Below are positions 30,838 through 58,098 of a DNA stretch of 64,000 nt, piece by piece. This stretch comes from DASRDR01 sp963812945 [NCBI: uncultured Candidatus Rokubacteria bacterium] (GTDB taxonomy: Bacteria; Methylomirabilota; Methylomirabilia; Rokubacteriales). The number at the start of each line of letters is the position of its first letter. The stretch's first letter is position 1. The position numbers and the translations under genes are program-made. The stretch is from assembly GCA_963812945.1 (NCBI GenBank), contig CAWEXD010000010.1:682001-746000 (forward strand). The letters are read 5' to 3'. The notes below the pieces were generated by a model. It searched no databases. It saw nothing but the letters and a program-made list of their open reading frames with translations, and had not been told where the DNA came from.

Positions 30838-30894
30838 CCCACAGGCCGAAGGCCGTCCGATCAACTCCCGCGGAGCCAGGGTAGCCCAGTGAGC
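30838..30894. repeat. nuo-junction repeat, copy 1 (nuoL/nuoM)
   Basis: It contains the core ACAGGCCGAAGGCCGTCC (30841-30858), then GATCAACTC, then GGGTAGCCCAGTGAGC (30879-30894). GGCC-GAA-GGCC can form a tiny hairpin. It fills the gap between nuoL and the GTG of nuoM (30912). Core and tail blocks recur at 54591-54668, and the core alone at 53107 and 58053. Confidence 0.8.
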
Positions 30895-30911
30895 GCGCCA
30901 CGGGTCGCGCG

Positions 30912-32456
30912 GTGACCGAGCTGCCCGTCCTCTCGCTCGTCACGGTGACGCCGTTCCTGGCGGCCTGTCTCATCATGGCGTTCGGCCGCACGCGCCCGAT
31001 GGCGGTGCGGCTCATCGCCACGGTGGCGGCGAGCCTGACCCTCGTCCTGTCGGTGTACGTGTACGCCGCGTACGACCCGGCCGCCGGGGGCTTCCAGTTC
31101 CAGGAGCGGTACCCCTTGGTGCGGGCGCTCGGCATCGCCGTCGAGCTGGGCGCCGACGGCATGTCCGCGCTGATGATCCTCCTGACGGCGATCATCATCT
31201 TCGCCGGCGTGTTCGCGTCGTGGACGGTGCGGGTGCGGGACCAGGAGTTCTACGCCCTCCTCCTCACGCTCGTGACCGGCGTGTTCGGCGTCTTCGTCTC
31301 GCTCGACCTCTTCGTGTTCTTCCTCTTCTACGAGATCGCCGTCTTGCCGATGTACCTCCTCATCGGCATCTGGGGCTCGACGGGCGAGGTCCGCCCCCAG
31401 GGCATCTTCGCCTGGGCGTTCCGGGAGACGGGGGTCGGCACCAAGGAATACGCGGCGATGAAGCTGACCCTCTACCTCCTGTTCGGGTCGGCGTTCATCC
31501 TGGTCGGCCTCTTCGTCCTGTACTTCGCCGCCGGCGTCGGCTCGTTCTCGCTCGTCGCGCTCTCGGAGGTCACCTTCTCGCCGGCCACCCAGCGCTGGGT
31601 GTTCCTGCTGCTCTACGTGGGCTTCGGCATCCTGGCGGGCATCTGGCCGCTCCACACCTGGTCGCCCGACGGCCACGCCTCCGCCCCCACGGCGGTCTCG
31701 ATGCTCCACGCGGGCGTGCTCATGAAGCTCGGCGCGTACGGCGTCGTGCGCGTGGCGATGACGCTCCTGCCCGAAGGGACGCAGGCCTGGGCGCCGCTCG
31801 TGGGGACCGTGGCGGTCATCAACGTCGTGTACGGCGCGCTGTCGGCGATGGCCCAGACGGATCTCAAGTACGTCGTCGCCTACTCGTCGGTCTCCCACAT
31901 GGGGCTCGTCATGCTGGGCGCCGCCACCTTGACCGAGGCGGGGCTCAACGGCTCCGTCTACCAGATGTTCGCCCACGGGATCATGACGGGGCTGTTCTTC
32001 GCGCTGGTGGGACTCATCTACGAGAAGTCCCACACGCGCGAGATCGGCCGCATGGGCGGGTTCGGGCGGCGCATGCCCGGCATCGCGGCCTGCTTCACGC
32101 TCGGGGGCCTGTCGTCGCTCGGGCTCCCCGGCCTCGCCGGGTTCGTCGCGGAGATCCTCACCTTCCTCGGCGCCTGGCAGTCGGCCACCCGGTGGTGGCT
32201 CTTCCCCGCGGTCCTCGGCACGCTCCTCACGGCCATCTACGTCCTCCGCGTGGCGAAGCAGATCTTCTGGGGGCCGCTCGCCCCCGGGCCGCACGGGGAG
32301 TGGGCGGCCCTTCCCGACGCCGAGGGCCCCGAGTGGGTGAGTCTCGTCTTCCTGGCCGCGCTCCTGATCCTCTTCGGCCTGGTGCCGGGGCTCGTGCTCT
32401 CGCGCATCGACCCGGCGACTGTCGCCCTGCTGGACCGGATCGGGGTGCTCCCGTGA
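30912..32456 (+). CDS. nuoM: NADH-quinone oxidoreductase subunit M (cluster 1)
   Basis: A 514-residue antiporter-like subunit. Motifs include FVFFLFYEIAVLPMYLLIGIWG, LLYVGFGILAGIWPLHTWSPDGHASAPTAVSMLHAGVLMKLG (conserved Lys) and TDLKYVVAYSSVSHMGLVMLG, over about 14 helices. It pumps protons in the distal arm. GTG start just after the first nuo-junction repeat. The stop overlaps nuoN by one base (TGATG). Confidence 0.97.
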   Translation: MTELPVLSLVTVTPFLAACLIMAFGRTRPMAVRLIATVAASLTLVLSVYVYAAYDPAAGGFQFQERYPLVRALGIAVELGADGMSALMILLTAIIIFAGVFASWTVRVRDQEFYALLLTLVTGVFGVFVSLDLFVFFLFYEIAVLPMYLLIGIWGSTGEVRPQGIFAWAFRETGVGTKEYAAMKLTLYLLFGSAFILVGLFVLYFAAGVGSFSLVALSEVTFSPATQRWVFLLLYVGFGILAGIWPLHTWSPDGHASAPTAVSMLHAGVLMKLGAYGVVRVAMTLLPEGTQAWAPLVGTVAVINVVYGALSAMAQTDLKYVVAYSSVSHMGLVMLGAATLTEAGLNGSVYQMFAHGIMTGLFFALVGLIYEKSHTREIGRMGGFGRRMPGIAACFTLGGLSSLGLPGLAGFVAEILTFLGAWQSATRWWLFPAVLGTLLTAIYVLRVAKQIFWGPLAPGPHGEWAALPDAEGPEWVSLVFLAALLILFGLVPGLVLSRIDPATVALLDRIGVLP

Positions 32457-33862
32457 TGCTGCTGGCGCTCGAGCTCGGGGTTGCGGCGCTGGCCCTGGTC
32501 GTCTTCGTCCTGGGCCTCGGCGGCGGGCGCGCCCGCTCGCGCGAGGTCGGGTGGGTCACCGCCGTCGGGCTCGCCGGTCTCTACGGGCTCTCGCTGGTGA
32601 TCGACGCCCGCGGCCCCCTCTTCGACGGGGCCTTCGTGGTGGACGCGCTGGCCGTGTTCCTCAAGCAGATCTTTCTCCTGGCGACGCTCCTGGCGGTGGT
32701 CGGGGGGCTCGCCCGGCGGGACACCCCCGAGGCCCGGCGCGCGCTCGAGTACCACCTGCTGGTCCTGACCTCGCTCCTCGGCATGATGATCCTGGCGTCG
32801 GCCCGTGAGCTGGTGCTGCTCTTCGTGGCGTTCGAGCTGATGTCGATCCCGCTGTACGTCCTGGCCGGGTTCGTCAAGAAGGACGCGCGCGCGGTCGAGG
32901 CGTCGCTGAAGTTCTTCCTCGTCGGGAGCGTCTCGACGGCGGTGCTGGCCTACGGGCTGTCGTTCGTCTACGGGGCGAGCGGCAGCACGCGGCTGGACGT
33001 CGTCACGCGGGCGGCGGCCGGCGGGGACCCGCTCTTGATCCTGGGCCTCCTCCTCGTCCTCGGCGGGGTGGGGTTCAAGATCGCGGCCTTCCCGTTCCAC
33101 ATGTGGGTGCCCGACACCTACGAGGCGGCCGCGACCCCGTTCGTCGCGTGGCTGTCAGTGGCGCCGAAGGCGGCCGGGTTCGCCGCGCTGCTGCGGATCT
33201 TCGTCGAGCGGGCGGGGCCGACGGCGCCGGTGTGGTCGGGGACGGTGGCCGTCCTGGGCGCGCTGACGCTCGTGGCGGGGAACCTCATGGCGCTGCCCCA
33301 GACGGACGCGAAGCGGCTCCTCGCCTACTCGGGGATCGCCCACATCGGCTACATGCTCCTCGGCCTGGCGGCGATGAGCCCCCACGGCGTGGCGATGATG
33401 CTCTTCTACCTGGTCGCCTACCTGTTCTCGAACATGGGCGCGTTCATGGTCGTGGAGGCGGTGGCGGAGGCCGAGGGCTCGTCCACGATCCGGAGCTTCC
33501 GGGGCCTCGCCCAGCGCTCGCCGGCGCTCGCGCTCGCGATGCTCCTGTTCCTCTTGTCGCTGGGGGGGATTCCGTTCGTGGTGGGCTTCTGGGCCAAGCT
33601 CTACGTGTTCTGGGCCGCGGCCCAGGCGGGGTTCTACGGGCTGGTGCTCCTCGCCGCGGTGCTGACCGTCGTGGCGCTCTTCTACTACCTCCTGGTCGCC
33701 AAGCAGATGTACATCGACGCGCCGGCCCGCTCCACGCCGGTTCCCGTGCCCCCGGCCCTGGCCCTCGTGATCCTGGTCAGCGCCGCCGCGGTCGTTCTCC
33801 TGGGCCTCTATCCGGGGCCCCTCGTCGACACGGCCCTCCGCGCGGCGGCGCCGCTGTTCTGA
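32456..33862 (+). CDS. nuoN: NADH-quinone oxidoreductase subunit N (cluster 1)
   Basis: A 468-residue antiporter-like subunit. Motifs are LLFVAFELMSIPLYVLAGFVKKDARAVEASLKFFLVG, GFKIAAFPFHMWVPDTYEAAATPFVAWLSVAPKAAGF and TDAKRLLAYSGIAHIGYMLLG. It is the last gene of cluster 1; a convergent gene follows 22 nt later with no obvious hairpin terminator. ATG 32456 is preferred; GTG 32453 directly before it is in frame. Confidence 0.97.
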   Translation: MLLALELGVAALALVVFVLGLGGGRARSREVGWVTAVGLAGLYGLSLVIDARGPLFDGAFVVDALAVFLKQIFLLATLLAVVGGLARRDTPEARRALEYHLLVLTSLLGMMILASARELVLLFVAFELMSIPLYVLAGFVKKDARAVEASLKFFLVGSVSTAVLAYGLSFVYGASGSTRLDVVTRAAAGGDPLLILGLLLVLGGVGFKIAAFPFHMWVPDTYEAAATPFVAWLSVAPKAAGFAALLRIFVERAGPTAPVWSGTVAVLGALTLVAGNLMALPQTDAKRLLAYSGIAHIGYMLLGLAAMSPHGVAMMLFYLVAYLFSNMGAFMVVEAVAEAEGSSTIRSFRGLAQRSPALALAMLLFLLSLGGIPFVVGFWAKLYVFWAAAQAGFYGLVLLAAVLTVVALFYYLLVAKQMYIDAPARSTPVPVPPALALVILVSAAAVVLLGLYPGPLVDTALRAAAPLF

Positions 33863-33883
33863 CGGGCCCCGTCCGGGCGGCGC

Positions 33884-34177
33884 TCACCTCTTCCAGCGCC
33901 CCTCCTGGTAGACCCAGCCCTCGGCCGTCTTGACGTGGCGCCCGGGGATCCAGGTTCCCTGCGCCTGGACCCACCGGCCGTTGACCCAGCCGTAGGCGCT
34001 GCCCGTCCACGCCCAGTGGCCGGCGATCCAGACGAACTGCGGCCCGGGCGAGGGCGGGGGCTTCTCGACCTGAACCGCCGGCGGCGGGTCGGGCGCCCCG
34101 GCGGACGCCGGTGCCGCGCCCAGGACCACGAGTCCCAGGGCGGTCGCCAGGACCCCGTGACCCACGCGCATCTTCAT
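33884..34177 (-). CDS. Secreted WXXGXW-repeat protein
   Basis: A 97-residue protein with a signal peptide (MKMRVGHGVLATALGLVVLGAAPASA). The mature part has repeated aromatic-Gly units: VWIAGHWAW, YGWVNGRWVQ, TWIPGRHV and WVYQEGRW. This is the YXWQ/WXXGXW repeat family of small envelope proteins, function unknown. GGGAGAGCG lies before the ATG at 34177; longer upstream starts would bury the signal. It converges on nuoN. Confidence 0.75.
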   Translation of the reverse strand: MKMRVGHGVLATALGLVVLGAAPASAGAPDPPPAVQVEKPPPSPGPQFVWIAGHWAWTGSAYGWVNGRWVQAQGTWIPGRHVKTAEGWVYQEGRWKR

Positions 34178-34350
34178 GTTCGCTCTCCCGTTCCCCACGC
34201 TCGTTCCGACGACACGCCGCCCGCGGCATTCAGCGGGACCGCCGGCCGCTAGATCTGGCCTAGCTAAGCAGGGGCCCCCCCACCCGTCAAGCGGGCTGGC
34301 CCCGACACGCACGGCCGGAGCCCCGCCGCCCTCCCGGAACCGGTCCGCGC

Positions 34351-34395
34351 TTGACAGCGAAAGGGGGGCACGCTACCGTACCGACCGGTCGGTAC
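34351..34395 (+). promoter_or_regulatory. TetR promoter with palindromic operator
   Basis: TTGACA (34351-34356), 17 bp, TACCGT (34374-34379). A perfect 18-bp palindrome GTACCGACCGGTCGGTAC (34378-34395) overlaps the -10 and start region and ends 4 bp before the ATG. This is the classic layout for TetR autorepression. No ribosome-binding site lies between, so the mRNA is probably leaderless. Confidence 0.8.
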
Positions 34396-34399
34396 AGTC

Positions 34400-35032
34400 A
34401 TGACTGCGCGCCTGTCGCCCGTCAAGGAGCAGATCCTCGAGGTCGCCACGCGCCTGATGGCCGTCCGTGGCTACCATCGGACCGCGCTCGACGACGTTCT
34501 CCGGGAGAGCGGAGCTGGAAAGGGTAATTTCTACCACTACTTCCGCTCCAAGGAGGACCTCGGCTACGCCATCCTCGACCGGCTGCTGGAACGGTTCGAG
34601 GTCCGGACGCTCGGCCCCATCTTCGGAGATCCCGAGCGTCCGCCGCTCGACCAGGTCGAGGCCTTCCTCGATCAGGTGCTGGCCACCCAGCGAGCCGGCA
34701 ACTGCGTCGGCGGCTGCCCCATCGGCAACCTCGCCACCGAGCTCGCGGATGCCCACGAGGGCTTTCGCCAGCGCCTCGCCGACGGGTTCGAGCGATGGCG
34801 TCGATGCCTGGCCGCGGCGCTCGAGCGCGCCCGCGCGACCGGGACCCTCACGTCCGAGGTCGAGCCCGACGCCGTCGCGCGCTTCCTGGTGGCCGGCATC
34901 GAGGGCGCCATCCTCCTGACCAAGGTCCAGAAGGACATCCGCGTGATGGAGCACTGCGTGGCCGAGCTCCGGCGGCACCTCGGCCTCTACCGGTGCGACG
35001 ACGCGCCGGTCGTGGCGAGCGCGCGGCGATGA
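34400..35032 (+). CDS. TetR/AcrR-family regulator
   Basis: A 210-residue repressor. The N-terminal HTH covers about 8-55 (ILEVATRLMAVRGYHRTALDDVLRESGAGKGNFYHYFRSKEDLGYAIL). The ligand domain has GNCVGGCPIGNLATEL, a Cys pair typical of the TetR_C_16/YxaF-like group whose members respond to small electrophiles or flavonoids. It probably binds the palindrome overlapping its own promoter. Its stop overlaps the start of an ECF sigma gene (ATGA), so the regulator and the sigma factor are co-translated. Confidence 0.93.
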   Translation: MTARLSPVKEQILEVATRLMAVRGYHRTALDDVLRESGAGKGNFYHYFRSKEDLGYAILDRLLERFEVRTLGPIFGDPERPPLDQVEAFLDQVLATQRAGNCVGGCPIGNLATELADAHEGFRQRLADGFERWRRCLAAALERARATGTLTSEVEPDAVARFLVAGIEGAILLTKVQKDIRVMEHCVAELRRHLGLYRCDDAPVVASARR

Positions 35033-35643
35033 CCACCGAGCGCGCCCCCGTCGTGTCGGCCGAGACGCCGGACCAGCGGCTCCACCAGGACCTGCTCGCC
35101 CGCGCGCCCGGCGCGGTGGAGGCGCTCGTCTATCGCTACGGCGTGAAGATCTACCGCCTCGCGCTGCGCATCACGGGCAACCCCGAGGACGCCCAGGAGG
35201 TGAGCCAGGACGTTCTCTGGACCATCGTGCGGAAGATCGAGTCCTTCAAGGGGGAGTCGGCGCTCGGCAGCTGGATCTACCGGATCACCGCCAACGCGGC
35301 CTACGAGAAGCTCCGCAGCCGGCGCGGCAAGGACCAGGTCTCGTGGGAAGCGCTCTTGCCCGCGTTCGACGGCGACGGCCACCTCCTCGAGCCCGGCCGT
35401 GACTGGACCCAGCAAGCCGAGGATCCCGCGCTTCAGGCCGAAGCGCGGCAGCGGCTCAAGGAAGCGATCGACAGTCTCCCCGCGGACTATCGGACGGCGT
35501 TCGTCCTCCACGACATGGAGGGCCTGTCCAACCCGGAGATCGCCGAGATGCTTGGCGTGAGCCTGCCCGCCGTCAAGTCGCGCGTTCACCGCTCGCGACT
35601 GTTCCTGCGTCAGCGTCTGGCGCACTACTTCGGGCGCGCCTGA
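35029..35643 (+). CDS. ECF-type RNA polymerase sigma factor
   Basis: A 204-residue sigma-70 family protein with region 2 (about 25-95: YRLALRITGNPEDAQEVSQDVLWTIVRKIESFKG..SWIYRITANAAYEKLR) and region 4 (about 145-195: LPADYRTAFVLHDMEGLSNPEIAEMLGVSLPAVKSRVHRSRLFLRQRL). No anti-sigma gene is adjacent. Translation is coupled to the TetR gene, suggesting that the sigma factor is controlled by the TetR operator. The 3' end overlaps the convergent TVP38 gene by 71 nt. Confidence 0.93.
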   Translation: MTTERAPVVSAETPDQRLHQDLLARAPGAVEALVYRYGVKIYRLALRITGNPEDAQEVSQDVLWTIVRKIESFKGESALGSWIYRITANAAYEKLRSRRGKDQVSWEALLPAFDGDGHLLEPGRDWTQQAEDPALQAEARQRLKEAIDSLPADYRTAFVLHDMEGLSNPEIAEMLGVSLPAVKSRVHRSRLFLRQRLAHYFGRA

Positions 35644-36307
35644 CGCGCAGCGACGGGCGGAGCCAGAGCGCGAGGGCGGTCAGCGCCCCGAGCCCCAGCG
35701 CCCCGGCGACGAGCGGGCCGAGCCCCCGGCTCCCGAGGTCGCCCGCGGCGGCCATGAGAAAGGTCGCCGGGGTCATGCCGATCGCCGTCGCGACCAGGAA
35801 CGGGACGAGACGCATCCGCGTGAGCCCCGCCGCGTAGCTCAGGAGGTCGAACGCGGTGAGGGGCATGAGCCGCGCGAGCAGCACCGCGAACACGCCGTAG
35901 CGCTCGAAGAAGCCGTCCGTCCGGCGGAGCGCGGCCGGGCTGACGACCCGCTCGACCAGGGGGCGCCCCCCGAGCCGCGCGAGCCCGAAGCAGAGCGCGG
36001 CGGAGGCGAGCACGCTCGCCCACGACAGGAGCCCGCCCCAGAGCGTGCCGAAGAGCAGCCCGTTCGCGTAGATCACCGGGAAGGATGGGAGTGGCGCCAC
36101 CACCGCCTGGCCCAGGATCAGCGCGGCGCTGACGCCGGGCGCCCAGGGCCCGAATGCCCGGAGGTGATCGCGGACGCCGGCCCGGTCCCCCGTCGCCAGG
36201 AGGTGGCCGATCTCGAGGAGCTCGGTGCGCAGGGGGGACCAGGCCGCCAGGAGGAGCAGCCCCGCGAGACCGAGGGCCGGGAGGAGCACCAGGGCACGGA
36301 GCCGCAC
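35573..36307 (-). CDS. TVP38/TMEM64-family membrane protein
   Basis: A 244-residue inner-membrane protein of the VTT (DedA-like) superfamily with about six helices. The family core is visible in LPSFPVIYANGLLFGTLWGGLLSW, RTDGFFERYGVFAVLLARLMPLTAFDLLSYAAGLTRM and FLVATAIGMTPATF. DedA-like proteins are linked to lipid scrambling or transport. It starts from a GTG. The last 71 nt overlap the sigma-factor gene tail to tail; the extra C-terminal residues (RVRRARSSAPDADAG) are hydrophilic. Confidence 0.88.
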   Translation of the reverse strand: MRLRALVLLPALGLAGLLLLAAWSPLRTELLEIGHLLATGDRAGVRDHLRAFGPWAPGVSAALILGQAVVAPLPSFPVIYANGLLFGTLWGGLLSWASVLASAALCFGLARLGGRPLVERVVSPAALRRTDGFFERYGVFAVLLARLMPLTAFDLLSYAAGLTRMRLVPFLVATAIGMTPATFLMAAAGDLGSRGLGPLVAGALGLGALTALALWLRPSLRVRRARSSAPDADAGTVASGERAT

Positions 36308-36330
36308 CCGGCCATGCTAACACCCGAACG

Positions 36331-36359
36331 TTGACAGTGTCCGACCGGTGTGGTCAAAT
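36331..36359 (+). promoter_or_regulatory. Promoter of the rplU-rpmA-obgE operon
   Basis: TTGACA (36331-36336), 17-bp spacer, TCAAAT (36354-36359) with a TGG extension just before it. It precedes the rplU GTG by about 50 bp and includes space for a leader. Confidence 0.65.
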
Positions 36360-36410
36360 CGGGGGCTCCAACAGCCCGCGCTCGCCGCGACTTTCCGAGG
36401 AGGCACCGCC

Positions 36411-36728
36411 GTGGAAGCCGTGATCGTGTCCGGAGGCAAGCAGTACCGTGTTCGCGAGGGAGACGTGGTGCGTCTCGAGCGCCTCCCGACCGGACAGGGC
36501 GACACGGTGGAGTTCCGCGAGGTGGCCTACGTCCGCGGCGAGGGGGATCCCGTCGTGGACCCCGCCCGGCTCGGCGCGGCGCGTGTCCTGGGCCAGGTGG
36601 TGCGCACGGGACGCGACAAGAAGATCGTGGTCGTGAAGTTCAAGCGCCGGAAGAACTATCGGCGCCGGCAGGGCCATCGCCAGGCGTTCACCCAGGTCCG
36701 GATCACCCGGATCGACGCGGGCGCCTGA
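36411..36728 (+). CDS. rplU: 50S ribosomal protein L21
   Basis: A 105-residue L21 with the N-terminal [22 protein letters not shown] and the basic RNA-binding end [26 protein letters not shown]. It binds 23S rRNA in the 50S subunit. GTG start 8 nt after GAGGAGG. First gene of the conserved rplU-rpmA-obgE group. Confidence 0.97.
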
Positions 36729-36750
36729 GGGGATACGGAGCACCGCGACC

Positions 36751-37011
36751 ATGGCACACAAGAAGGGCGTCGGAAGCTCGCGGAACGGGCGGGACAGCCA
36801 GCCCAAGATGCTCGGGGTCAAGCGCTTCTCCGGGCAATGGGTGCCCGCCGGGTCGATCCTCGTCCGCCAGCGCGGCACGCGGTTCTTCCCGGGCCGGAAC
36901 GTGGGCCTCGGGGTCGACTTCACGCTCTTCGCCAAGGCGACCGGCGTCGTGGCCTTCGAGGAGCGGAACGGCCGGCGGCTCGTGAGCATCCTCGAGCAGG
37001 CCGCGACCTAG
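36751..37011 (+). CDS. rpmA: 50S ribosomal protein L27
   Basis: An 86-residue L27 beginning [19 protein letters not shown], the flexible N-terminal tail that reaches toward the peptidyl-transferase centre. The core [21 protein letters not shown] is typical. The initial Met-Ala start shows that no N-terminal cleavage is needed. 22 nt after rplU. Confidence 0.98.
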
Positions 37012-39182
<2,171 letters not shown>

Positions 39183-39202
39183 CCCCGTGATACTCTAGGG
39201 CC

Positions 39203-40468
39203 GTGGCGGCGATCGACGTGCGCGAGCTGGTCGAGACGCGCGCCCGGGCCGCGCGCGAGGCCGCCCGGACCGTGGCCCTCGCGAACGCCCGCGTCAAGAG
39301 CGAGGCCCTGCTCCAGATGGCGCGCGGCGTCGAGGAGAAGGCGCGCGCGATCCTCGAGGCGAACCGCGCGGACCTCGAGCGCGCTCGCGGGCAGGGGCAT
39401 CCGCGCGCCTTCCTCGATCGGCTGACGCTCACGGACGCGCGCGTGGAAGCCATGGCGACCGGCATCCGCCAGGTCGCCGCCCTCCCCGATCCCGTCGGCG
39501 AGACCGTCCGGGGATGGCGACGGCCGAACGGGATCGAGATCGCGCGGGTCCGCGTGCCGCTGGGCGTCATCGGCTTCATCTACGAGAGCCGCCCGAACGT
39601 GACGGCCGACGCCGCGGCGCTCTGCGTGAAGAGCGGGAACGCCTGCGTGCTCCGCGGCGGCAAGGAAGCCATCGAGTCGAACGCGGTCATCGCCGCGATC
39701 CTCGCCAAGGGCCTGGAGAAGGCCGGGCTCCCCCCCGAGGCGATCGGGTTCGTGGACGTGCCGGATCGCGAGGCGGTCGAGATCCTCATCCGGCTCGACC
39801 GGTACATCGACCTGGTCGTGCCGCGCGGCGGCGAGGCGTTCGTCCGGCTGGTCGCCGAGCGGGCCACCATCCCGGTCCTCAAGCACGACAAGGGCCTCTG
39901 TCACGTCTACGTGGACGCCGGCGCGGACCTCCAGATGGCGGCCGACATCGCGGTGAACGCGAAGGCCCAGCGCCCGGGCGTCTGCAACGCGATGGAGACG
40001 CTCCTCGTCCACGGCGACGTCGCCGCGGCGTTCCTGCCCGCTGTCGCCGCGCGATTCCGCGACGCGGGCGTGGAGCTCCGGGGCTGCCCGCGGACGCAGG
40101 AGCTCGTCCCGGCCGCGCGCCCGGCGACCGAGGCCGACTGGGACACGGAGTACCTCGACCTCATCCTCTCGGTCCGGGTCGTCCCGAGCTTCGAGGAAGC
40201 CGTCCGGCACATCCGACAGCACGGCTCGGGGCTGGCCGAGGCCATCGTGACCCGGGACTACCAGCAGGCGCGCCGCTTCGTGGCCGAGGTGGACGCCGCC
40301 TGCGTGCTCGTCAACGCCTCCACGCGCCTGGTCGACGGGCAGCAGTTCGGCATGGGCGCGGAGCTCGGGATCTCGACGTCGAAGCTCCACGCCCGCGGCC
40401 CCGTCGGCCTCGAGGAGCTCACCACCACGAAGTTCGTGGTGATGGGCTCCGGCCAGATCCGCGAGTAG
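39203..40468 (+). CDS. proA: Gamma-glutamyl phosphate reductase
   Basis: A 421-residue aldehyde-dehydrogenase-fold enzyme that reduces glutamyl-5-phosphate with NADPH, second step of proline synthesis. Signatures are VPLGVIGFIYESRPNVTADAAALCVKSGNACVLRGGKEA and the catalytic Cys in AQRPGVCNAMETLLVH. GTG start 20 nt after proB. Confidence 0.97.
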   Translation: MAAIDVRELVETRARAAREAARTVALANARVKSEALLQMARGVEEKARAILEANRADLERARGQGHPRAFLDRLTLTDARVEAMATGIRQVAALPDPVGETVRGWRRPNGIEIARVRVPLGVIGFIYESRPNVTADAAALCVKSGNACVLRGGKEAIESNAVIAAILAKGLEKAGLPPEAIGFVDVPDREAVEILIRLDRYIDLVVPRGGEAFVRLVAERATIPVLKHDKGLCHVYVDAGADLQMAADIAVNAKAQRPGVCNAMETLLVHGDVAAAFLPAVAARFRDAGVELRGCPRTQELVPAARPATEADWDTEYLDLILSVRVVPSFEEAVRHIRQHGSGLAEAIVTRDYQQARRFVAEVDAACVLVNASTRLVDGQQFGMGAELGISTSKLHARGPVGLEELTTTKFVVMGSGQIRE

Positions 40469-48598: not shown

Positions 48599-48601
48599 CC
48601 G

Positions 48602-49561: not shown

Positions 49562-50517
49562 GCCCCGGCGCGCGCGGCGAGTCGCCGGGACGCCTGGCCT
49601 GGCGGGGCTTTCGCCGGAACGGCCCGGCGGTGGTGGGCCTGGGGATCGTTCTCGCCTTCTTCCTGATCGCCCTGGTCGGGGTCGCCCTGACGAAGGGGGC
49701 GCGGCCCGTGCTGGATCCCCGCGAGGTGCGCCTGCCCGACCGGCTCCAGGGGCCCTTCGCGCGGCCGAACAAGGAGTCGGTGCCCGCGGCCAGCTGGCCG
49801 CGGCTCGGCGTCTACCCCTTCGGCACCGACGAGCTGGGGCGGGACGTCTTCGCGCGGATGCTCGAGGGCGCCTTCGTGTCGCTCTCGGTGGGGTTCGTCG
49901 CCGTCGGCCTCGCGGTGGCGATCGGGATCGTCGTGGGGGGGGTCGCCGGGTACTACGGGCCGGTCCGCCTCCGGGTGGGGCCGCTCAGGCTCCTGACCGT
50001 CGACACGATCGTGACGGGCCTCATCGACGTCATGCTGTCGTTCCCGGCGTTCTTCCTGATCCTGACGGTCGTGGCGATCCTCAAGCCGTCGATCTGGAAC
50101 ATCATGGTCGTGATCGGGCTCACGAGCTGGGAGGGCACGGCCCGGTTCGTCCGCGCGGAGATCCTGTCGCTGCGGGAGCAGGAGTTCATTCACGCCTCCC
50201 AGGCGTCGGGGGCGCGGGGCAGCCGGATCATCGCCCGGCACCTCGTCCCGAACGCCCTCGGGCCCGTCCTCGTGTCGGCGACGCTCGGCGTCGCGGGCGC
50301 GATCCTGACGGAGTCGAGCCTGTCGTTCCTCGGCTTCGGGGTGCCGCCGCCCGACGCGACCTGGGGCAACGTCCTTGCCGACGGCAAGCGTTTCATCTTC
50401 GACGCCCCGTGGCTGACGCTCATCCCCGGGACGGCCATCCTCGTCGTCGTCCTCGCGTTCAACCTCTTCGGCGAGGGGCTGCGCGAGGCCTTCAACCCCC
50501 GGCTCCGCGAGCGCTGA
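49558..50517 (+). CDS. Peptide-type ABC transporter permease (DppC-like)
   Basis: A 319-residue permease with the DppC N-terminal TM segment (GPAVVGLGIVLAFFLIALVGVALT), PFGTDELGRDVFARMLEG, and the EAA-like loop QEFIHASQASGARGSRIIARHLVPNALGP. Final motif TLIPGTAILVVVLAFNLFGEGLREAF is family typical. There is a large periplasmic insert (about 40-85) before GTDELGRD. No ATP-binding subunit gene follows; a tRNA and lipA come next. Confidence 0.94.
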   Translation: MSPGARGESPGRLAWRGFRRNGPAVVGLGIVLAFFLIALVGVALTKGARPVLDPREVRLPDRLQGPFARPNKESVPAASWPRLGVYPFGTDELGRDVFARMLEGAFVSLSVGFVAVGLAVAIGIVVGGVAGYYGPVRLRVGPLRLLTVDTIVTGLIDVMLSFPAFFLILTVVAILKPSIWNIMVVIGLTSWEGTARFVRAEILSLREQEFIHASQASGARGSRIIARHLVPNALGPVLVSATLGVAGAILTESSLSFLGFGVPPPDATWGNVLADGKRFIFDAPWLTLIPGTAILVVVLAFNLFGEGLREAFNPRLRER

Positions 50518-50533
50518 CCGGGGTGCCGCGATC

Positions 50534-50563
50534 TTGACAACGCGCGAGACCGGGCGGCAAGAT
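50534..50563 (+). promoter_or_regulatory. Probable promoter of tRNA-Leu(GAG)
   Basis: TTGACA (50534-50539) with CAAGAT (50558-50563) 18 bp downstream; the tRNA starts 10 bp after it. The -10 is weak (3 of 6). Confidence 0.45.
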
Positions 50564-50572
50564 ACGCCCTAC

Positions 50573-50657
<85 letters not shown>

Positions 50658-50738
50658 CCCTCTCCCCTTCTGGGGACGGCGGGGCTCCGAACCGGAGCCC
50701 CGTCGTGGTTTCGGGGATGGGCCGGGTCCGAGGCGCTG

Positions 50739-50747
50739 TGGCATAAT
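50739..50747 (+). promoter_or_regulatory. lipA promoter with extended -10
   Basis: TG-G-CATAAT: CATAAT (50742-50747) with a TGG extension and no -35 match, about 28 nt before the lipA ATG. It may also drive the overlapping nuo cluster 2. Confidence 0.5.
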
Positions 50748-50774
50748 GACCACCGGTACGAGCACTTCCCGCGA

Positions 50775-51761
50775 ATGATGCTGACGCTTCCCGTCATCCA
50801 GCCCGACGCACCACGGGAGCCCCAGGCGCGCAAGCCGGCCTGGCTCAAGGTCCGTGCGCCCGGCGGCCCCAACTACATGCGCCTGCAGGCCCTCATGCGC
50901 GAGCGGAAGCTCCACACCGTCTGCGAGGAGGCGCGCTGCCCGAACATCGGCGAGTGCTGGGAGGAGCGGACGGCGACCTTCATGATCCTGGGCGACGTCT
51001 GCACTCGCCGCTGCGGGTTCTGCGCGGTCGCGCACGGGCGGCCCGAGTGGGAGGACTGGGGGGAGCCGGACCGGGTCGGGCGCACGGTCGCCGAGATGGG
51101 GCTCGCCCACGTGGTGGTGACGAGCGTCAACCGCGACGACCTCGCCGACGGCGGGTCCGAGATTTTCGCGCGCACGATCACCGCGATCCGGCGCGAGGCG
51201 CCGGGCTGCCGCGTGGAGGTCCTGATCCCGGACTTCCAGGGCTCGGCGGCCGCGCTCGACACCGTGCTCCGCGCCCGGCCCGACGTCCTGAACCACAACA
51301 TCGAGACGGTGCCGCGCCTCTACCGCGAGGTGCGGCCGGGCTCGCGCTACGAGCGAAGCCTGGAGCTCTTCGGCCGGGCCCGCCGCCACGAGACGGCGCC
51401 CGTCGTCAAGTCGGGCATGATGCTCGGCCTGGGCGAGTCGCTGGAGGAGGTGCGCGCCACGATGGCCGACCTCCACGCGGCCGGCGTCGAGCTCCTGACC
51501 CTCGGCCAGTACCTCCGGCCCTCGCCTCGGCACCTGCCCGTGGTGCGCTACGCCCCGCCCGAGGAGTTCGCGGCGCTCGGCGCCGAGGGCCGGGCGCTCG
51601 GGTTCCGCCATGTCGAGGCGGGGCCCCTGGTGCGCTCCTCGTACCACGCCAAGCGCCAGGTCGAGCACGCCGCCGCCGCCGCCCCCGCCGCCCCCGCCGG
51701 GCCTGCTGCCGGGCCTGCTGCCGGGCCTGCTGCCGGGCCTGCTGCCGGGCCTGCTGATTGA
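50775..51761 (+). CDS. lipA: Lipoyl synthase
   Basis: A 328-residue radical-SAM enzyme that inserts two sulfurs into octanoyl groups on E2 proteins. The auxiliary cluster motif [13 protein letters not shown] and the radical-[13 protein letters not shown] (CxxxCxxC) are present, as is NRDDLADGG. The C-terminal about 25 residues are an odd tail of repeated PAAG units encoded by a 12-bp minisatellite. Its stop overlaps the ATG of nuoA of cluster 2. Lipoyl groups are needed by the pyruvate dehydrogenase encoded about 9 kb downstream. Confidence 0.97.
51697..51756. repeat. 12-bp tandem repeat in the lipA tail
   Basis: Five perfect copies of CCGGGCCTGCTG lie end to end, encoding a repetitive (PAAG)n lipA C-terminus. 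They end 5 bp before the nuoA start. The copies are identical, which suggests recent expansion and a site prone to length change. Confidence 0.93.
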
Positions 51762-52111
51762 TGCAGTACGTCCCGATCCTGATGGTCTTCGCCATCTCGC
51801 TCGGGGTGGCGTGTCTGCTCGCGTACCTCCCCGCCCTGCTGGGCCCGCGGCGGGCGACCCCGATCAAGCTCGAGACGTTCGAGTGCGGCAAGGACGTTCT
51901 CGCGCGCCCGGAGGGACGGTTCGCGATCAAGTTCTCGACGACCGCCATCTTCTTCATCATCTTCGACATCGAACTGATGTTCGTGTTCCCCTGGACCGTC
52001 GTGTACCGGAGCCTCGGCCTCTACGGGTTCCTCACGATGGTCGTGTATCTGGGGATCCTGATGCTCGGGCTGTACTACGTGTGGCGCAAGGGAGGGCTCG
52101 AGTGGGAGTAG
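51761..52111 (+). CDS. nuoA: NADH-quinone oxidoreductase subunit A (cluster 2)
   Basis: A 116-residue three-helix subunit, with the conserved loop [45 protein letters not shown]. The ATG at 51761 shares its A with the lipA stop codon (TGATG); TTG 51758 is an alternative. As in cluster 1, its last 10 nt overlap nuoB, which starts from a GTG. It opens cluster 2, which carries A-K but not L, M or N. Confidence 0.95.
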
Positions 52112-52560
52112 CCGACTTCTTCACGACGAAGCTCGACGCGGCGCTCGGCTGGGCCCGGAAGTACTCCATCTTCCAGTACCCGTTCGTCACGGCGTGCTGC
52201 GGCATGGAGTACATGGCGACCGCGTGCTCCCACTACGACGTCGACCGCTTCGGGGCCGGGCTGCCGCGCTTCTCGCCGCGCCAGGCCGACGTGCTCTTCG
52301 TCGTGGGCACGATCAGCCACAAGATGGCCCCGGTCCTCCGCCGCGTCTACGACCAGATGACCGAGCCGAAGTGGGTGGTCGCCTTCGGCGTCTGCACCTG
52401 CACGGGCGGGTTCTACGACAACTACGCGACGGTCCAGGGCATCGACACGATCCTGCCGGTGGACGTGTACATCCCGGGCTGCCCGCCCCGGCCCGAGAGC
52501 GTGCTCGACGGCCTGATGAAGCTCCAGGACAAGATCGCCGTGGGGCGGCAGCGGTACTGA
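52102..52560 (+). CDS. nuoB: NADH-quinone oxidoreductase subunit B (cluster 2)
   Basis: A 152-residue subunit lacking the long N-terminal extension of the cluster 1 copy. Cluster N2 ligands: [10 protein letters not shown] (tandem Cys), [14 protein letters not shown] and IPGCPPRPE. The CTCTGG pattern differs from CANSGG in cluster 1, again showing distinct lineages. GTG start overlapping nuoA by 10 nt. Confidence 0.96.
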
Positions 52561-52585
52561 GACCGGGCGCCCGCGCCTCTCTCCC

Positions 52586-53083
52586 ATGGACGGCACGGAG
52601 ATCCTCGCGCGGCTGGCCGAGCGCTTCGGCGCGGCCGTCCTCCTGTCCCACGCCGAGCACGGGGACCACACCCTCGTGGTGGAGCGGACGGCGCTGCCCG
52701 AGGTGCTCCGCTTCTGCCGGGACGACGCGGCGCTCCGGTTCGACATGCTGATGGACCTCAGCGCCGTGGACTACCTCGCCTACCCCGGCCGGGAGGACGC
52801 GCCGCGCTTCGAGATCGTCTACCACCTCTATTCGGTTCCGCACAACCACCGGCTCCGGGTGAAGGCCGGCGTGGACGAGGACGACCCGGTCGTCCCGTCG
52901 GCGGTGCCGCTCTGGCCGATCGCGAACTGGTTCGAGCGCGAGGTGTGGGACATGTTCGGCCTCCGGTTCACCGGCCATCCCGACCTCCGCCGCCTCCTGC
53001 TCTACGAGGGGTTCGAGGGGCACCCCCTCCGGAAGGACTACCCGGTCAACCGCCGGCAGCCCCTCATCGGCCCCAGGAACTGA
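52586..53083 (+). CDS. nuoC: NADH-quinone oxidoreductase subunit C (cluster 2)
   Basis: A 165-residue subunit. Family blocks LMDLSAVDYLAYPGREDAPRFEIVYHLYS and [47 protein letters not shown] are evident. Unfused to NuoD. It is followed by the second nuo-junction repeat and nuoD. Confidence 0.96.
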   Translation: MDGTEILARLAERFGAAVLLSHAEHGDHTLVVERTALPEVLRFCRDDAALRFDMLMDLSAVDYLAYPGREDAPRFEIVYHLYSVPHNHRLRVKAGVDEDDPVVPSAVPLWPIANWFEREVWDMFGLRFTGHPDLRRLLLYEGFEGHPLRKDYPVNRRQPLIGPRN

Positions 53084-53103
53084 GCCCGGGACGCCCATGA
53101 CCC

Positions 53104-53131
53104 CCCACAGGCCGAAGGCCGTCCGATCAGT
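53104..53131. repeat. nuo-junction repeat, copy 2 (nuoC/nuoD)
   Basis: The core ACAGGCCGAAGGCCGTCC (53107-53124), then GATCAGTTC, matches copy 1 exactly through the core and near-exactly after it. The tail block is degenerate (AGGGCGGCCGGGTGAGC). The nuoD GTG (53156) follows. Confidence 0.8.
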
Positions 53132-53155
53132 TCAGCGCCCAGCGAGGGCGGCCGG

Positions 53156-54565
53156 GTGAGCACGCCCTCCGAGACCGCCAGCGCGACTCCGCCCCCCGCC
53201 ACGCGCACCCAGGACTTCTTCCTCGGGGAGGGCGTCCCGGAGGGCGGGACCGAGAACCTCCTCGTCAACCTGGGCCCCTCGCACCCGGCGATGCACGGCA
53301 TCGTCCGCATCGTGACGGAGCTGGACGGCGAGCAGGTGGTGAAGACCGACGTCGAGATCGGGTACCTCCACCGCGCGTTCGAGAAGGAGTGCGAGATCGG
53401 GCCCTACAACGCGGCGATGCCGTACACGGACCGTCTGAACTACGTCTCGCCCCTCATCAACAACTTCGGCTTCTGCGGGGCGGTCGAGAAGCTCCTGGGG
53501 ATCACGCCCACCGAGCGCTGCCAGTACATCCGCGTGATCATGAGCGAGATCTCGCGGATCTGCGACCACCTCACGTGCGTCGGCGCCTCGGCGATGGAGC
53601 TGGGCGCGTTCACCGTGTTCCTCTACATGATCAAGGCGCGCGAGTTCCTCTGGGAGCTCGTGGAGCTCGTGACCGGGGCGCGGCTCACCATCTCGTACGG
53701 CCGCGTCGGCGGCCTCAAGGCGGACCTGCCCCCCGACTTCGAGGCGCGCGTCCGCCACGCGTTCGCCGAGACGCGAACGGTCCTCGCGGAGTCCCACCAG
53801 CTGCTCACGACCAACCGGATCTTCGTCGACCGGATGCAGGGCGTCGGCGTGCTCTCCGGGGACGAGGCGATCGCGTACTCGGTCACGGGGCCGCTGCTCC
53901 GCGCCTCGGGGGTGCCCTTCGACGTCCGGCGCGCGACGCCCTACTGGGTCTACGACCGGCTCGACTTCGAGATCCCGGTCGGCGACGGGGGCGACAACTA
54001 CGACCGCTACCTGGTCCGCATGGCCGAGATGGAGCAGTCGATGCGGATCACCGAGCAGGCGCTGGCCGCGCTCCCCGGCGGGCCGGTCAACGTCGACCAC
54101 GAGGGGCGCCCGTTCGTCCCGCCGGCCGAGTACGTGGACCGCGGCAAGCTCGGCAAGACCGCGGGCCTCCTGATCACGGACATCCGGCTCTCGCCGAACC
54201 TGGCCGGGCAGGAGCGCCGGCACCACGTGGCGCTGAACGCCCCCGACAAGCGCGCCGTGCTCCCGCCCAAGGAGACGACGTACGGCTCGATCGAGGGCCT
54301 GATGAACCACTTCATGCTGATCATGGACGGCTACGGCATCCGCCCGCCCCGGGGCGAGGCGTACTTCCCCGTCGAGGGGGCGAACGGCGAGCTCGGCTTC
54401 TACGTCGTCTCCGACGGCACCGACCGGCCGTACCGGGTGCGCTGCCGGCCGCCGTGCCTCCCGCCCATGGCCGCGCTCCCTCGCATGCTCGAGGGGGGCA
54501 TGGTCGCCGACATCGTGCCCACGTTCGGCTCGGTCAACATGATCGGCGGGGAGATGGACCGGTGA
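53156..54565 (+). CDS. nuoD: NADH-quinone oxidoreductase subunit D (cluster 2)
   Basis: A 469-residue 49-kDa subunit, long because of an N-terminal extension and internal insertions (for example, QERRHHVALNAPDKRAVLPPKE). Quinone-site motifs LGPSHPAMHGIVR and GYLHRAFEKECE are present. The end, ADIVPTFGSVNMIGGEMDR, is typical. GTG start close behind the second repeat; the third repeat follows its stop by 2 nt. Confidence 0.97.
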   Translation: MSTPSETASATPPPATRTQDFFLGEGVPEGGTENLLVNLGPSHPAMHGIVRIVTELDGEQVVKTDVEIGYLHRAFEKECEIGPYNAAMPYTDRLNYVSPLINNFGFCGAVEKLLGITPTERCQYIRVIMSEISRICDHLTCVGASAMELGAFTVFLYMIKAREFLWELVELVTGARLTISYGRVGGLKADLPPDFEARVRHAFAETRTVLAESHQLLTTNRIFVDRMQGVGVLSGDEAIAYSVTGPLLRASGVPFDVRRATPYWVYDRLDFEIPVGDGGDNYDRYLVRMAEMEQSMRITEQALAALPGGPVNVDHEGRPFVPPAEYVDRGKLGKTAGLLITDIRLSPNLAGQERRHHVALNAPDKRAVLPPKETTYGSIEGLMNHFMLIMDGYGIRPPRGEAYFPVEGANGELGFYVVSDGTDRPYRVRCRPPCLPPMAALPRMLEGGMVADIVPTFGSVNMIGGEMDR

Positions 54566-54567
54566 GC

Positions 54568-54668
54568 CAACAGGCCGCCACAGGCCGCCACAGGCCGAAG
54601 GCCGTCCGGTCAGACCCGTCCGACAAGACCCGTCTGATCAACTCGTGCAAAGCGCGGGTAGCCCAGTG
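54568..54668. repeat. nuo-junction repeat, copy 3 (nuoD/nuoE), expanded
   Basis: Three 10-bp units (CAACAGGCCG, CCACAGGCCG, CCACAGGCCG) begin the copy, then the core ACAGGCCGAAGGCCGTCC (54589-54606). Three 14-bp units follow (CGTCCGGTCAGACC, CGTCCGACAAGACC, CGTCTGATCAACTC). It ends with the same tail as copy 1, GGGTAGCCCAGTGAGC. The ATG of nuoE follows at 54672. The internal tandem units look like local amplification. Confidence 0.8.
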
Positions 54669-54671
54669 AGC

Positions 54672-55168
54672 ATGCCGGCGCCGTCGGCCCCTGCCGCCGG
54701 GCCGGTGCGCTTCTCGGAGGCGCAGCTCGCCGAGGTGCGCCGGCTGCAGGCGCTCTACCCGGTGCCGCGGGCGGCGCTCCTGCCCGTGCTGCGCCTGGCC
54801 CAGGAGACCTTCGGGCACGTCTCGCCCGCGGTCGAAGTCTACGTGGCCGGCCTCTTCGACCTCTCGCCCGCGCACGTCCACGAGGTGGTGACCTTCTACA
54901 CCCTGTTCTACCAGCGGCCGGTCGGCCGGCACGTCCTCGCGGTCTGCCACAACCTCTCGTGCACGCTCGCCGGGGCGGAGGACGTGCTCGCCCACCTGAA
55001 GACCCGGCTCGGGATCGAACCCGGCGAGACGACGCCCGACGGGCGCGTCACGCTCCTCCGGGTGGAGTGTCTCTGCGCGTGCGAGGTCGCCCCGATGATG
55101 CAGGTGGACGACGAGTACGTGGGTCCGCTCGACCGGGCGACGGTCGACCGCGTGCTGGCCGAGCTCCC

Positions 55169-55172
<4 letters not shown>
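54672..55172 (+). CDS. nuoE: NADH-quinone oxidoreductase subunit E
   Basis: A 166-residue 24-kDa-type subunit with a [2Fe-2S] cluster N1a: CHNLSCTLAG and CLCACEVAPMMQVDDEYVG give the four ligands. Start ATG 54672; GTG 54666 inside the repeat tail is an alternative. With NuoF and NuoG it forms the NADH-dehydrogenase module, present only in cluster 2. The stop overlaps nuoF. Confidence 0.96.
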
Positions 55173-56458
<1,286 letters not shown>

Positions 56459-56463
56459 GCGCG

Positions 56464-58098
56464 ATGCCGAAGCTGACGGTCGACGGCAAGGAGGTCGAGG
56501 TTCCGGCCGGGACGAACCTCATCGAGACCGCGCGCCGGCTCGGGATCGAGGTGCCCCACTACTGCTACCACCCGGGGCTCCCGATCGCCGGGGCGTGCCG
56601 GCTCTGCATGGTCGACATCGAGAAGACGCCGCGGCCGACGATCGCGTGCAACACGCTCGCCGCGGACGGCATGGCGGTCCTGACCCAGACGCCGCGCGTC
56701 CTCGAGCTCCGGCGCTCGGTCATGGAGTGGCACCTCATCAACCACCCCCTCGACTGCCCCGTCTGCGACCAGGCCGGGGAGTGCTGGCTGCAGATCTACT
56801 ACATGCAGCACGGGCTCTACGAGTCCCGGATGATCGACGACAAGGTGCACAAGCCGAAGGCGGTGCCGATTGGCCCGCACGTCATGCTGGACGCCGAGCG
56901 CTGCATTCTCTGCTCGCGCTGCGTGCGCTTCTGCGACACGGTGACGAAGACGGGCGAGCTCGGCATCTTCAACCGGGGCGATCACTCGGAGCTCGGGCTC
57001 TTTCCGGGCACCGTCCTCGACAACGCCTACTCCGGCAACGTGGTGGACATCTGCCCGGTCGGGGCCCTCACGGACCGCGACTTTCGCTTCCAGGCCCGCG
57101 TCTGGTACCTCGACCGCGCGAAGTCCGTCTGTCCGGGATGCGCCCGGGGCTGCAACATCGACGTGCACGTGAACCAGCGGCGCGCCCATCACGCGCAGGG
57201 CCGCCGGGTTGTGCGGTTGAAGCCCCGGTTCAACGCCGACGTGAACCGCTGGTGGATCTGCGACGAGGGCCGCTACGGCTTCGGGGACGTCGACGCCCCG
57301 ACCCGGCTCGAGCGCCCGGAGCTCCGCGAGGGCGGGACCCCGCGCCCGCTCACCTGGGACGAGGCCGTGACCGCGCTGGCCGAGGGTCTCCGCGCCGCCG
57401 GCCCGGAGTCGACGGGCGTGCTCCTCTCCCCCCGGATGACGAACGAGGATCTCTGGCTGGCCCGGCGCCTGTTCGTCGACACACTCGGCGTGCGGCACGT
57501 CGACTTCCGGGTGCCGCCCCCGGCGCCCGGCTCGGCGGACGACCTCCTTCGCGTCGCGGACAAGGCGCCGAACACGCGGGGCGCCGCGCTGCTCGGCGCG
57601 GGCCCGGCCGGGGCCCCCGACGGCCGGCACGTCCTCGACGCCGCCCGCGCCGGCCGCCTCAAGCTCCTCTGGGTCTTCGACCACGACCTCCTGGACTCGG
57701 GCTGGGCCCAGGCGGAGGTGGAGGAGGCGCTCGGGCGCGTCGAGGGCGTGGTCTTCCAGGGCCCGAATGCCCATGCGACGAGCGCGCGGGCCCACGTGGT
57801 CCTGCCGAGCGCCGCCTGGGTGGAGCGCGAGGGCACCTGGACGAACGTGGACGGCCGTGTCCAGCGATTCTGGCGGGCCGTGCTGCCGCGCGGCGACGCG
57901 CGGCCGGGCTGGGAGATCCTCGCCGCGGTCGCCCGCGCCCTCGGCCACGACTGGCGGCCCGCCCGCGCGGAGGCGCTCTTCCGAGAGCTGGCGGCCGCGG
58001 TGCCGGCCTTCGCCGGGCTGAGCTACAAGGCCCTCGGCGACCACGGGGCGCCACAGGCCGAAGGCCGTCCAATCAACACGCGCGGGGCTCCGGAGTGA
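56464..58098 (+). CDS. nuoG: NADH-quinone oxidoreductase subunit G, short form with repeat-encoded tail
   Basis: A 544-residue 75-kDa subunit. It has the [2Fe-2S] ferredoxin domain (CYHPGLPIAGACRLCMVDI), the HxxxCxxC motif (HPLDCPVCDQAGEC), a [4Fe-4S] site (CILCSRCVRFCD) and a further CPGCARGC..WICDEGR cysteine set. The molybdopterin-like domain that follows is short, so the protein is smaller than the usual 680-900 residues. The last residues, PQAEGRPINTRGAPE, are encoded by the fourth nuo-junction repeat, which supplies the C-terminus. It is in a tight run with nuoF and nuoH. Confidence 0.93.
   Translation: MPKLTVDGKEVEVPAGTNLIETARRLGIEVPHYCYHPGLPIAGACRLCMVDIEKTPRPTIACNTLAADGMAVLTQTPRVLELRRSVMEWHLINHPLDCPVCDQAGECWLQIYYMQHGLYESRMIDDKVHKPKAVPIGPHVMLDAERCILCSRCVRFCDTVTKTGELGIFNRGDHSELGLFPGTVLDNAYSGNVVDICPVGALTDRDFRFQARVWYLDRAKSVCPGCARGCNIDVHVNQRRAHHAQGRRVVRLKPRFNADVNRWWICDEGRYGFGDVDAPTRLERPELREGGTPRPLTWDEAVTALAEGLRAAGPESTGVLLSPRMTNEDLWLARRLFVDTLGVRHVDFRVPPPAPGSADDLLRVADKAPNTRGAALLGAGPAGAPDGRHVLDAARAGRLKLLWVFDHDLLDSGWAQAEVEEALGRVEGVVFQGPNAHATSARAHVVLPSAAWVEREGTWTNVDGRVQRFWRAVLPRGDARPGWEILAAVARALGHDWRPARAEALFRELAAAVPAFAGLSYKALGDHGAPQAEGRPINTRGAPE
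58051..58087. repeat. nuo-junction repeat, copy 4 (end of nuoG)
   Basis: ACAGGCCGAAGGCCGTCC (58053-58070), then AATCAACACGCGCGGGG. It lies in frame inside the last 16 codons of nuoG and ends just before the nuoH start (58103). The tail block is only partly kept (CGGAGTGATG). Confidence 0.8.

What the first reader, a model, noticed from the sequence alone, without database searches (positions are those of the whole stretch)
30838..58087. A short repeat recurs at four nuo junctions in both complex I clusters
ACAGGCCGAAGGCCGTCC is found at 30841, 53107, 54589 and 58053. Each copy lies immediately upstream of a nuo start (nuoM, nuoD, nuoE, nuoH), and I saw none elsewhere in the window. Copies 1 and 3 also share GATCAACTC and GGGTAGCCCAGTGAGC. 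Because both nuo clusters carry it and nothing else in the window does, it could be a shared RNA-level signal (processing, stability, translation) or a mobile repeat that tolerates these gaps. Its core contains GGCC-GAA-GGCC, a tiny hairpin.
Basis: seen in the sequence. Interest (0 to 1): 0.78.

Follow-up and report, generated by a model that had tools for sequence, protein, structure and literature searches.

The report
Translated spacer repeats between nuo genes
A short DNA repeat sits at four joints of two respiratory complex I operons, where it mostly forms tiny reading frames that may hand ribosomes on from one gene to the next, much as a known family of mobile spacers is thought to do in mycobacteria.

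Summary
The repeat is real. CCACAGGCCGAAGGCCGTCC occurs four times on the + strand: nuoL/nuoM (30839), nuoC/nuoD (53105), nuoD/nuoE (54588) and the 3' end of nuoG before nuoH (58051). The 18-mer has no other match with up to 2 mismatches.

The hairpin reading is weak: 3 of 4 copies fold less stably than the shuffle mean, and the stem never varies.

The stronger pattern is translational. In 3 of 4 copies the repeat lies in a 19-35 codon frame whose TGA overlaps a GTG start (GTGA). In two of these the mini-ORF's GTG also overlaps the upstream gene's stop, just after a strong Shine-Dalgarno-like sequence. The fourth copy is read in frame as NuoG's C-terminal tail.

This is the layout described for mycobacterial MIRUs, thought to insert at start codons and keep -4 nt coupling (PMC12548453, passage). 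I read it as a MIRU-like, coupling-preserving spacer. The case is moderate: bridging by chance is about 0.6% (post hoc), similar Shine-Dalgarno-like sequences occur at 2 of 15 repeat-free gene ends, nuo restriction has p about 0.04, and the genome is not held.

The parts
30839..30858 (+). repeat core, copy 1 (nuoL/nuoM junction)
30833..30892 (+). mini-ORF 1 (GTG, 19 codons, TGA); its GTG overlaps the nuoL stop (GTGA 30833-30836)
   Evidence: translation inferred
30889..30915 (+). second mini-ORF (GTG, 8 codons, TGA), chained by GTGA to mini-ORF 1 and to nuoM GTG 30912
   Evidence: translation inferred
30820..30824 (+). GGAGG Shine-Dalgarno-like sequence in the nuoL 3' end, just before mini-ORF 1
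   Evidence: duplex -9.3
53105..53124 (+). repeat core, copy 2 (nuoC/nuoD junction)
53097..53159 (+). mini-ORF 2 (ATG, 20 codons, TGA); TGA overlaps nuoD GTG 53156; starts 13 nt after the nuoC stop
   Evidence: translation inferred
54588..54607 (+). repeat core, copy 3 (nuoD/nuoE junction)
54562..54669 (+). mini-ORF 3 (GTG, 35 codons, TGA); GTGA overlaps with the nuoD stop at one end and the nuoE GTG 54666 at the other
   Evidence: translation inferred
54570..54597 (+). 10-nt tandem repeat (2.8 copies) in copy 3
54604..54645 (+). three diverged 14-nt units in copy 3 (seen by eye)
54548..54553 (+). GGGGAG Shine-Dalgarno-like sequence in the nuoD 3' end, before mini-ORF 3
   Evidence: duplex -8.6
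58051..58070 (+). repeat core, copy 4, in frame in the 3' end of nuoG
58051..58098 (+). repeat-coded NuoG C-terminal tail; stop in GTGATG, 4 nt before nuoH ATG 58103

Best explanation
The repeat is a short (about 56-104 bp) interspersed element that inserted at gene joints of the two nuo operons in sense orientation, at or near start codons of the form GTGA/ATGA. It is tolerated because it is read through: ribosomes leaving the upstream gene start on a mini-ORF in the element, whose TGA overlaps the GTG of the next gene (or of a second mini-ORF), so -4 nt translational coupling continues. In copies 1 and 3 the mini-ORF has taken over an original Shine-Dalgarno sequence, and the gene downstream depends on coupling. 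In copy 4 the element became the in-frame tail of NuoG. Shown: the copies, frames, overlaps and Shine-Dalgarno energies. Inferred: that the elements moved, that the mini-ORFs are translated, and that coupling is why they are tolerated. The peptides themselves probably do nothing.
For: Four copies, same strand, at nuo joints. Mini-ORFs with GTGA overlaps: both ends in copies 1 and 3, 3' end in copy 2; copy 4 is open in the nuoG frame. In copy 3, two extra 10-nt and two extra 14-nt units add 48 nt, so its end stays in the same frame as copy 1's (both end ARVAQ, stop). Copies 1-3 sit in gaps of 75, 72 and 100 nt. Strong Shine-Dalgarno-like sequence before the GTG of mini-ORFs 1 and 3 (-9.3, -8.6), weaker before nuoM and nuoE (-3.7, -4.7; median of 61 predicted genes -5.3); of 210 in-gene DTGA sites 2.9% and 5.2% are as strong. 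In the solved-structure rows shown (60 of 82) no best NuoG stretch ends beyond residue 534 of 547, and the repeat starts at residue 533. Same layout as described for MIRUs in PMC12548453 (passage).
Against: At 71% G+C stops are rare: bridging by chance is about 0.23, 0.33 and 0.23 for copies 1-3 and 0.33 for copy 4, joint 0.6%, and I looked for it after seeing the sequence. The frame over the core differs: copies 1 and 4 read PQAEGRP, mini-ORFs 2 and 3 read HRPKAV; the PQAEGRP frame is open in copies 2 and 3 as well, without a start codon before it. Copy 2's 5' end does not overlap nuoC. Copy 1 needs a second 8-codon ORF to reach nuoM. nuoD and nuoH have fair Shine-Dalgarno sequences of their own (-7.4, -6.7), and nuoF and nuoG, without the repeat, have weak ones (-2.2, -2.1). 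Of 15 gene ends in DTGA with neither repeat nor overlapping next gene, 2 have equally strong sequences (-10.3, -10.8); the 5 overlapping pairs without the repeat have -8.6, -2.7, -6.4, -2.2 and -5.6. One repeat-free nuo gap (nuoB/nuoC, cluster 1) is 85 nt by my gene calls. No empty site or relative could be examined.
Confidence: 0.45

Rival explanations
1. A generic short interspersed repeat that drifts into any short gap; its open frames are a by-product of 71% G+C.
For: Joint chance of the bridging is about 0.6% before allowing for hindsight. nuo restriction is about 0.04. Peptide frames differ among copies. Strong Shine-Dalgarno-like sequences also occur at 2 of 15 repeat-free DTGA gene ends.
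Against: All four copies are in sense orientation at or beside gene joints. Copy 3's extra 48 nt keeps the terminal frame. Strong Shine-Dalgarno-like sequences lie just before two of the mini-ORFs.
Confidence: 0.32
2. An RNA signal: the GGCC-GAA-GGCC hairpin marks processing, stability or translation control of nuo mRNAs.
For: The core is invariant in 4 of 4 copies. The hairpin has probability 0.78 and 0.97 in copies 1 and 4; copy 3 folds better than shuffles, z -2.79.
Against: Probability is only 0.19 and 0.53 in copies 2 and 3; 3 of 4 folds are less stable than the shuffle mean. No Rfam match there. No terminator-like or sigma-70-like site at copies 2-4 (copy 1 was outside that scan). The stem never varies, so no covariation test is possible.
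Confidence: 0.14
3. Regulatory leader peptides: the mini-ORFs sense something and tune complex I translation.
For: Mini-ORFs lie before nuoM, nuoD and nuoE. An intergenic small ORF that promotes translation of the next gene is reported in Salmonella (PMC8092293, search listing only).
Against: The peptides are not conserved: two different frames over the same DNA.
Confidence: 0.04

Closest known systems
MIRU (mycobacterial interspersed repetitive unit), Supply et al. 1997 as described in PMC12548453 and PMC4213456 (passages read; the 1997 paper itself not read)
   Same: Short units at operon joints, with an internal ORF coupled to the next gene at -4 nt, apparently inserted at start codons; similar size (53 and 77 bp types; here about 56-104 bp).
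   Different: Host not identified as a mycobacterium; no sequence comparison made; one copy fused in frame to the upstream gene; copy number in the genome unknown. In M. tuberculosis the MIRU-bearing senX3-regX3 gap also drives transcription (PMC4213456); no sigma-70-like promoter was found at copies 2-4 here.
Repeats read in frame in proteins: Rickettsia RPE (PMC3733652) and enterobacterial RU (PMC2759123); passages read
   Same: A repeat read in frame as part of a protein, in some RU cases at its 3' end, like copy 4 in NuoG.
   Different: CGTC-class RPE have 8-9 bp stems and RU long hairpins; here only a 4-bp stem.
REP elements, GTAG/CGTC super-families (PMC3733652, passages)
   Same: Short, interspersed, GC-rich hairpin; CGTC occurs at the edge of the core.
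   Different: REP stems are 5-13 bp (GTAG) or 8-9 bp (CGTC); here 4 bp, and the CGTC overlaps the stem.

Membership tests
MIRU | Short repeat at joints of co-directional genes, in sense orientation | tested here: met
   4 of 4 copies; copy 4 lies in the nuoG 3' end
MIRU | Internal ORF coupled to the downstream gene at -4 nt | tested here: inconclusive
   Direct in 2 of 4 (nuoD, nuoE), through a second mini-ORF in copy 1, not in copy 4; joint chance about 0.6%
MIRU | Insertion at a start codon | tested here: inconclusive
   Shine-Dalgarno-like sequences before the mini-ORFs of copies 1 and 3, but also at 2 of 15 repeat-free gene ends; no empty site available
MIRU | Dispersed, apparently mobile family in the genome | not testable with these tools
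   Whole genome not held
MIRU | Sequence related to mycobacterial MIRUs; mycobacterial host | not tested
   No MIRU sequence was fetched. For the host: the best long NuoD matches in 100 genomes of the phylum of the Planobispora handle are 46-47% identical, listed fragments up to 51%
REP (GTAG/CGTC) | Palindromic stem of at least 5 bp with an unpaired GTAG or CGTC tag | tested here: not met
   4-bp GGCC/GGCC stem; criterion from PMC3733652 passages
Described RNA family (Rfam 15) | Match above gathering score | tested here: not met
   3 matches in the window, none at the repeats

The most novel reading that the evidence does not exclude
A lineage outside the mycobacteria has evolved its own family of selfish mini-elements that home to GTGA/ATGA stop-start overlaps. 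They survive by keeping translational coupling, and have gathered in both complex I operons, where subunit ratios depend on coupled translation.
Probability: 0.28. Interest if true: 0.65.

Novelty: new variant of a known kind. Interest (0 to 1): 0.4.

Why it matters
If true, inserting into translational coupling sites is a more general strategy for small repeats than the mycobacterial case alone suggests. It would also give natural test cases of how far apart two coupled genes can be pushed if a mini-ORF bridges the gap. If not, the repeat is an ordinary interspersed spacer.

Tried and rejected
Duplication of the nuo cluster as the source of the copies: rejected, because the copies sit at L/M in cluster 1 and at C/D, D/E and G/H in cluster 2, not at matching joints. 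Origin from the similar nuoG stretch at 56847 (CACAAGCCGAAGGCGGTGCCGAT): its gapped score of 29 lies within the range of 12 shuffled windows (25-32), so treated as chance.

Search for the repeat elsewhere: the exact 20-mer gave 5 stretches in the genome collection. All 5 lie in stop-to-stop frames whose longest is at least 170 codons, and in 4 of 5 a frame shown reads TAFGLW on the other strand; the organisms are unrelated to each other, so I take them as chance. An earlier count said TAFGLW of all five, which is wrong for L002. The exact 18-mer gave 1 hit in IMG/VR, inside an 848-codon open frame of a viral contig. Degenerate patterns for head and tail gave 0 hits each in IMG/VR. NuoD found no relative there.

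Host lineage: the best long NuoD match in 150 genomes of the phylum of the Rhodobacteraceae handle is 50% identical, with listed fragments up to 56% (136 of 150 had a match). In 100 genomes of the phylum of the Planobispora handle it is 46-47%, fragments up to 51% (90 of 100). Both match lists were cut. From memory the gene order suggested Rokubacteria (Methylomirabilota); no call tests this.

Literature: in the rows listed by the searches I saw no title or abstract start about such a repeat in nuo operons or about MIRU-like elements outside mycobacteria. The lists were capped and cover open-licence papers only.

Full report
Observation. The four copies are exact over 20 bases (CCACAGGCCGAAGGCCGTCC) at 30839, 53105, 54588 and 58051, all on the + strand. 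With up to 3 mismatches over 18 bases there are 6 matches against a shuffle mean of 0.30. The two extra ones (56849 and 61907, each with 3 mismatches) are not supported as copies: a gapped search with copy 1 scored at most 30 outside the copies, while 12 shuffled windows reached 25-32. Copies 2-4 score 45-56 against copy 1.

Neighbours. NCBIfam models match nuoL, nuoM, nuoN, nuoC, nuoD and nuoE above a curated cut-off; nuoH matches its family at 1e-81 but below the equivalog cut-offs. Pfam supports the remaining subunits (nuoI by 4Fe-4S domains only). Cluster 1 runs A, B, C, a NIPSNAP gene, D, H, I, J, K, L, M, N. Cluster 2 runs A to K, followed by pyruvate dehydrogenase genes. Copies 1-3 lie in gaps of 75, 72 and 100 nt. 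Most repeat-free nuo junctions are tighter, but nuoB/nuoC of cluster 1 is 85 nt by my gene calls, and nuoH/nuoI of cluster 2 is 85 or 16 nt depending on the start chosen. Copy 4 lies in the open nuoG frame.

Frames. Copy 1: GTG 30833 overlaps the nuoL stop, the frame runs 19 codons to TGA 30890-30892, which overlaps GTG 30889; that frame runs 8 codons to TGA 30913-30915, which overlaps the nuoM GTG 30912. Copy 2: ATG 53097, 20 codons, TGA 53157-53159 overlapping the nuoD GTG 53156; its start does not overlap nuoC. Copy 3: GTG 54562 overlaps the nuoD stop; 35 codons; TGA 54667-54669 overlaps the nuoE GTG 54666. Copy 4: the nuoG frame reads through the repeat (PQAEGRPINTRGAPE) and stops at 58096-58098 in GTGATG, 4 nt before the nuoH ATG 58103. 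The core is read as PQAEGRP in copies 1 and 4 but as HRPKAV in mini-ORFs 2 and 3; the PQAEGRP frame is also open in copies 2 and 3, in the frame of the downstream gene, but with no start codon before it. In the solved-structure search of NuoG, 60 of 82 matched sequences are shown; the best stretches that reach farthest end at residue 534 of the 547-residue query (8rqz_C, 9gzq_A, 1aa6_A), and the repeat begins at residue 533, so it appears to supply an extra tail.

How surprising. With ends fixed and interiors shuffled, the chance of an open, in-phase bridge is about 0.23, 0.33 and 0.23 for copies 1-3 and 0.33 for copy 4; jointly 0.018 for three and 0.006 for four. This is modest and post hoc; in copies 2 and 4 the shuffled interiors never gave a stop. 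Two further facts point the same way. Copy 3 is longer than copy 1 by 48 nt (two extra 10-nt and two extra 14-nt units), which keeps the same terminal frame. And the 20 bases before the GTG of mini-ORFs 1 and 3 pair strongly with the 16S tail (-9.3 and -8.6), more than those before nuoM and nuoE (-3.7 and -4.7; median of 61 predicted genes -5.3). Among 210 in-gene DTGA sites 2.9% and 5.2% are as strong; among random in-gene 20-mers 6.4% and 8.4%. That is what insertion between a Shine-Dalgarno sequence and its start codon would leave. Against this: nuoD and nuoH have fair sequences of their own (-7.4, -6.7), nuoF and nuoG lack both repeat and a good sequence (-2.2, -2.1), the 5 overlapping gene pairs without the repeat range from -2.2 to -8.6, and of 23 predicted genes ending in DTGA, 15 have neither repeat nor overlapping next gene, yet 2 of these 15 reach -10.3 and -10.8.

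RNA. The stem is 4 bp with a 3-nt loop. Its probability is 0.78, 0.19, 0.53 and 0.97 in copies 1-4, and fold energies have z = +1.19, +0.48, -2.79 and +1.06 against shuffles. Only copy 3 folds better than chance, and it carries extra tandem units. No Rfam family lies there, and no terminator-like or sigma-70-like site lies at copies 2-4 (copy 1 not scanned). The stem is identical in all copies, so covariation cannot be tested.

Specificity. All four copies are at nuo joints, but 21 of the 45 co-directional junctions with gap <200 in the window are nuo junctions, so 4 of 4 has a chance of about 0.04 (from my own gene calls, which place some starts late, for example nuoE and nuoI). The genome is not held, so I cannot say whether the repeat occurs at other operons.

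Distribution. In the collection described as 84,980 species genomes the exact 20-mer occurs in 5 stretches, all in open frames of organisms unrelated to each other; the exact 18-mer occurs once in IMG/VR. Diverged copies were not searched for there. The repeat is therefore private to this lineage in exact form, or its relatives are absent or diverged.

Comparison. A 2025 review (PMC12548453, passages only) describes MIRUs as apparently mobile repeats that insert at start codons so that an ORF inside is coupled to the gene at -4 nt, likely with minimal effect on expression, citing Supply et al. 1997, which I did not read. PMC4213456 (passages) gives 77-bp and 53-bp MIRUs in the senX3-regX3 gap, and says that gap can also drive transcription. 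The present repeat works like a MIRU in layout; membership is not shown because sequence kinship, mobility and host were not tested. REP membership fails on stem length. In-frame fusions like copy 4 are known for other small repeats (PMC2759123, passages).

Verdict. A real repeat, most simply a MIRU-like, translation-compatible spacer; the generic-repeat reading is not far behind, the RNA-hairpin reading is weaker, and nuo specificity is open.

Noticed in passing
13997-14051 and 19730-19784: 55-nt perfect direct repeat; the second copy is the 3' part of tRNA-Leu (caa). With a phage-type integrase gene at 18458-19645 and an int-alpA RNA match at 15237-15306, this looks like an integrated element of about 5.7 kb.
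   Followed up: partly
23063-33862 and 51761-60615: The two complex I clusters look complementary: no E, F or G among the genes called in the first, which has L, M, N; the second has A to K and is followed by pyruvate dehydrogenase genes instead of L, M, N.
   Followed up: partly
51696-51756: 12-nt tandem repeat, 5.1 perfect copies, directly before nuoA.
   Followed up: no
53156-54565: This NuoD is longer than the family model (residues 34-469 against model positions 2-386), suggesting an insertion of about 50 residues.
   Followed up: no
24660-25298: A NIPSNAP gene with two matched stretches sits between nuoC and nuoD of cluster 1.
   Followed up: no
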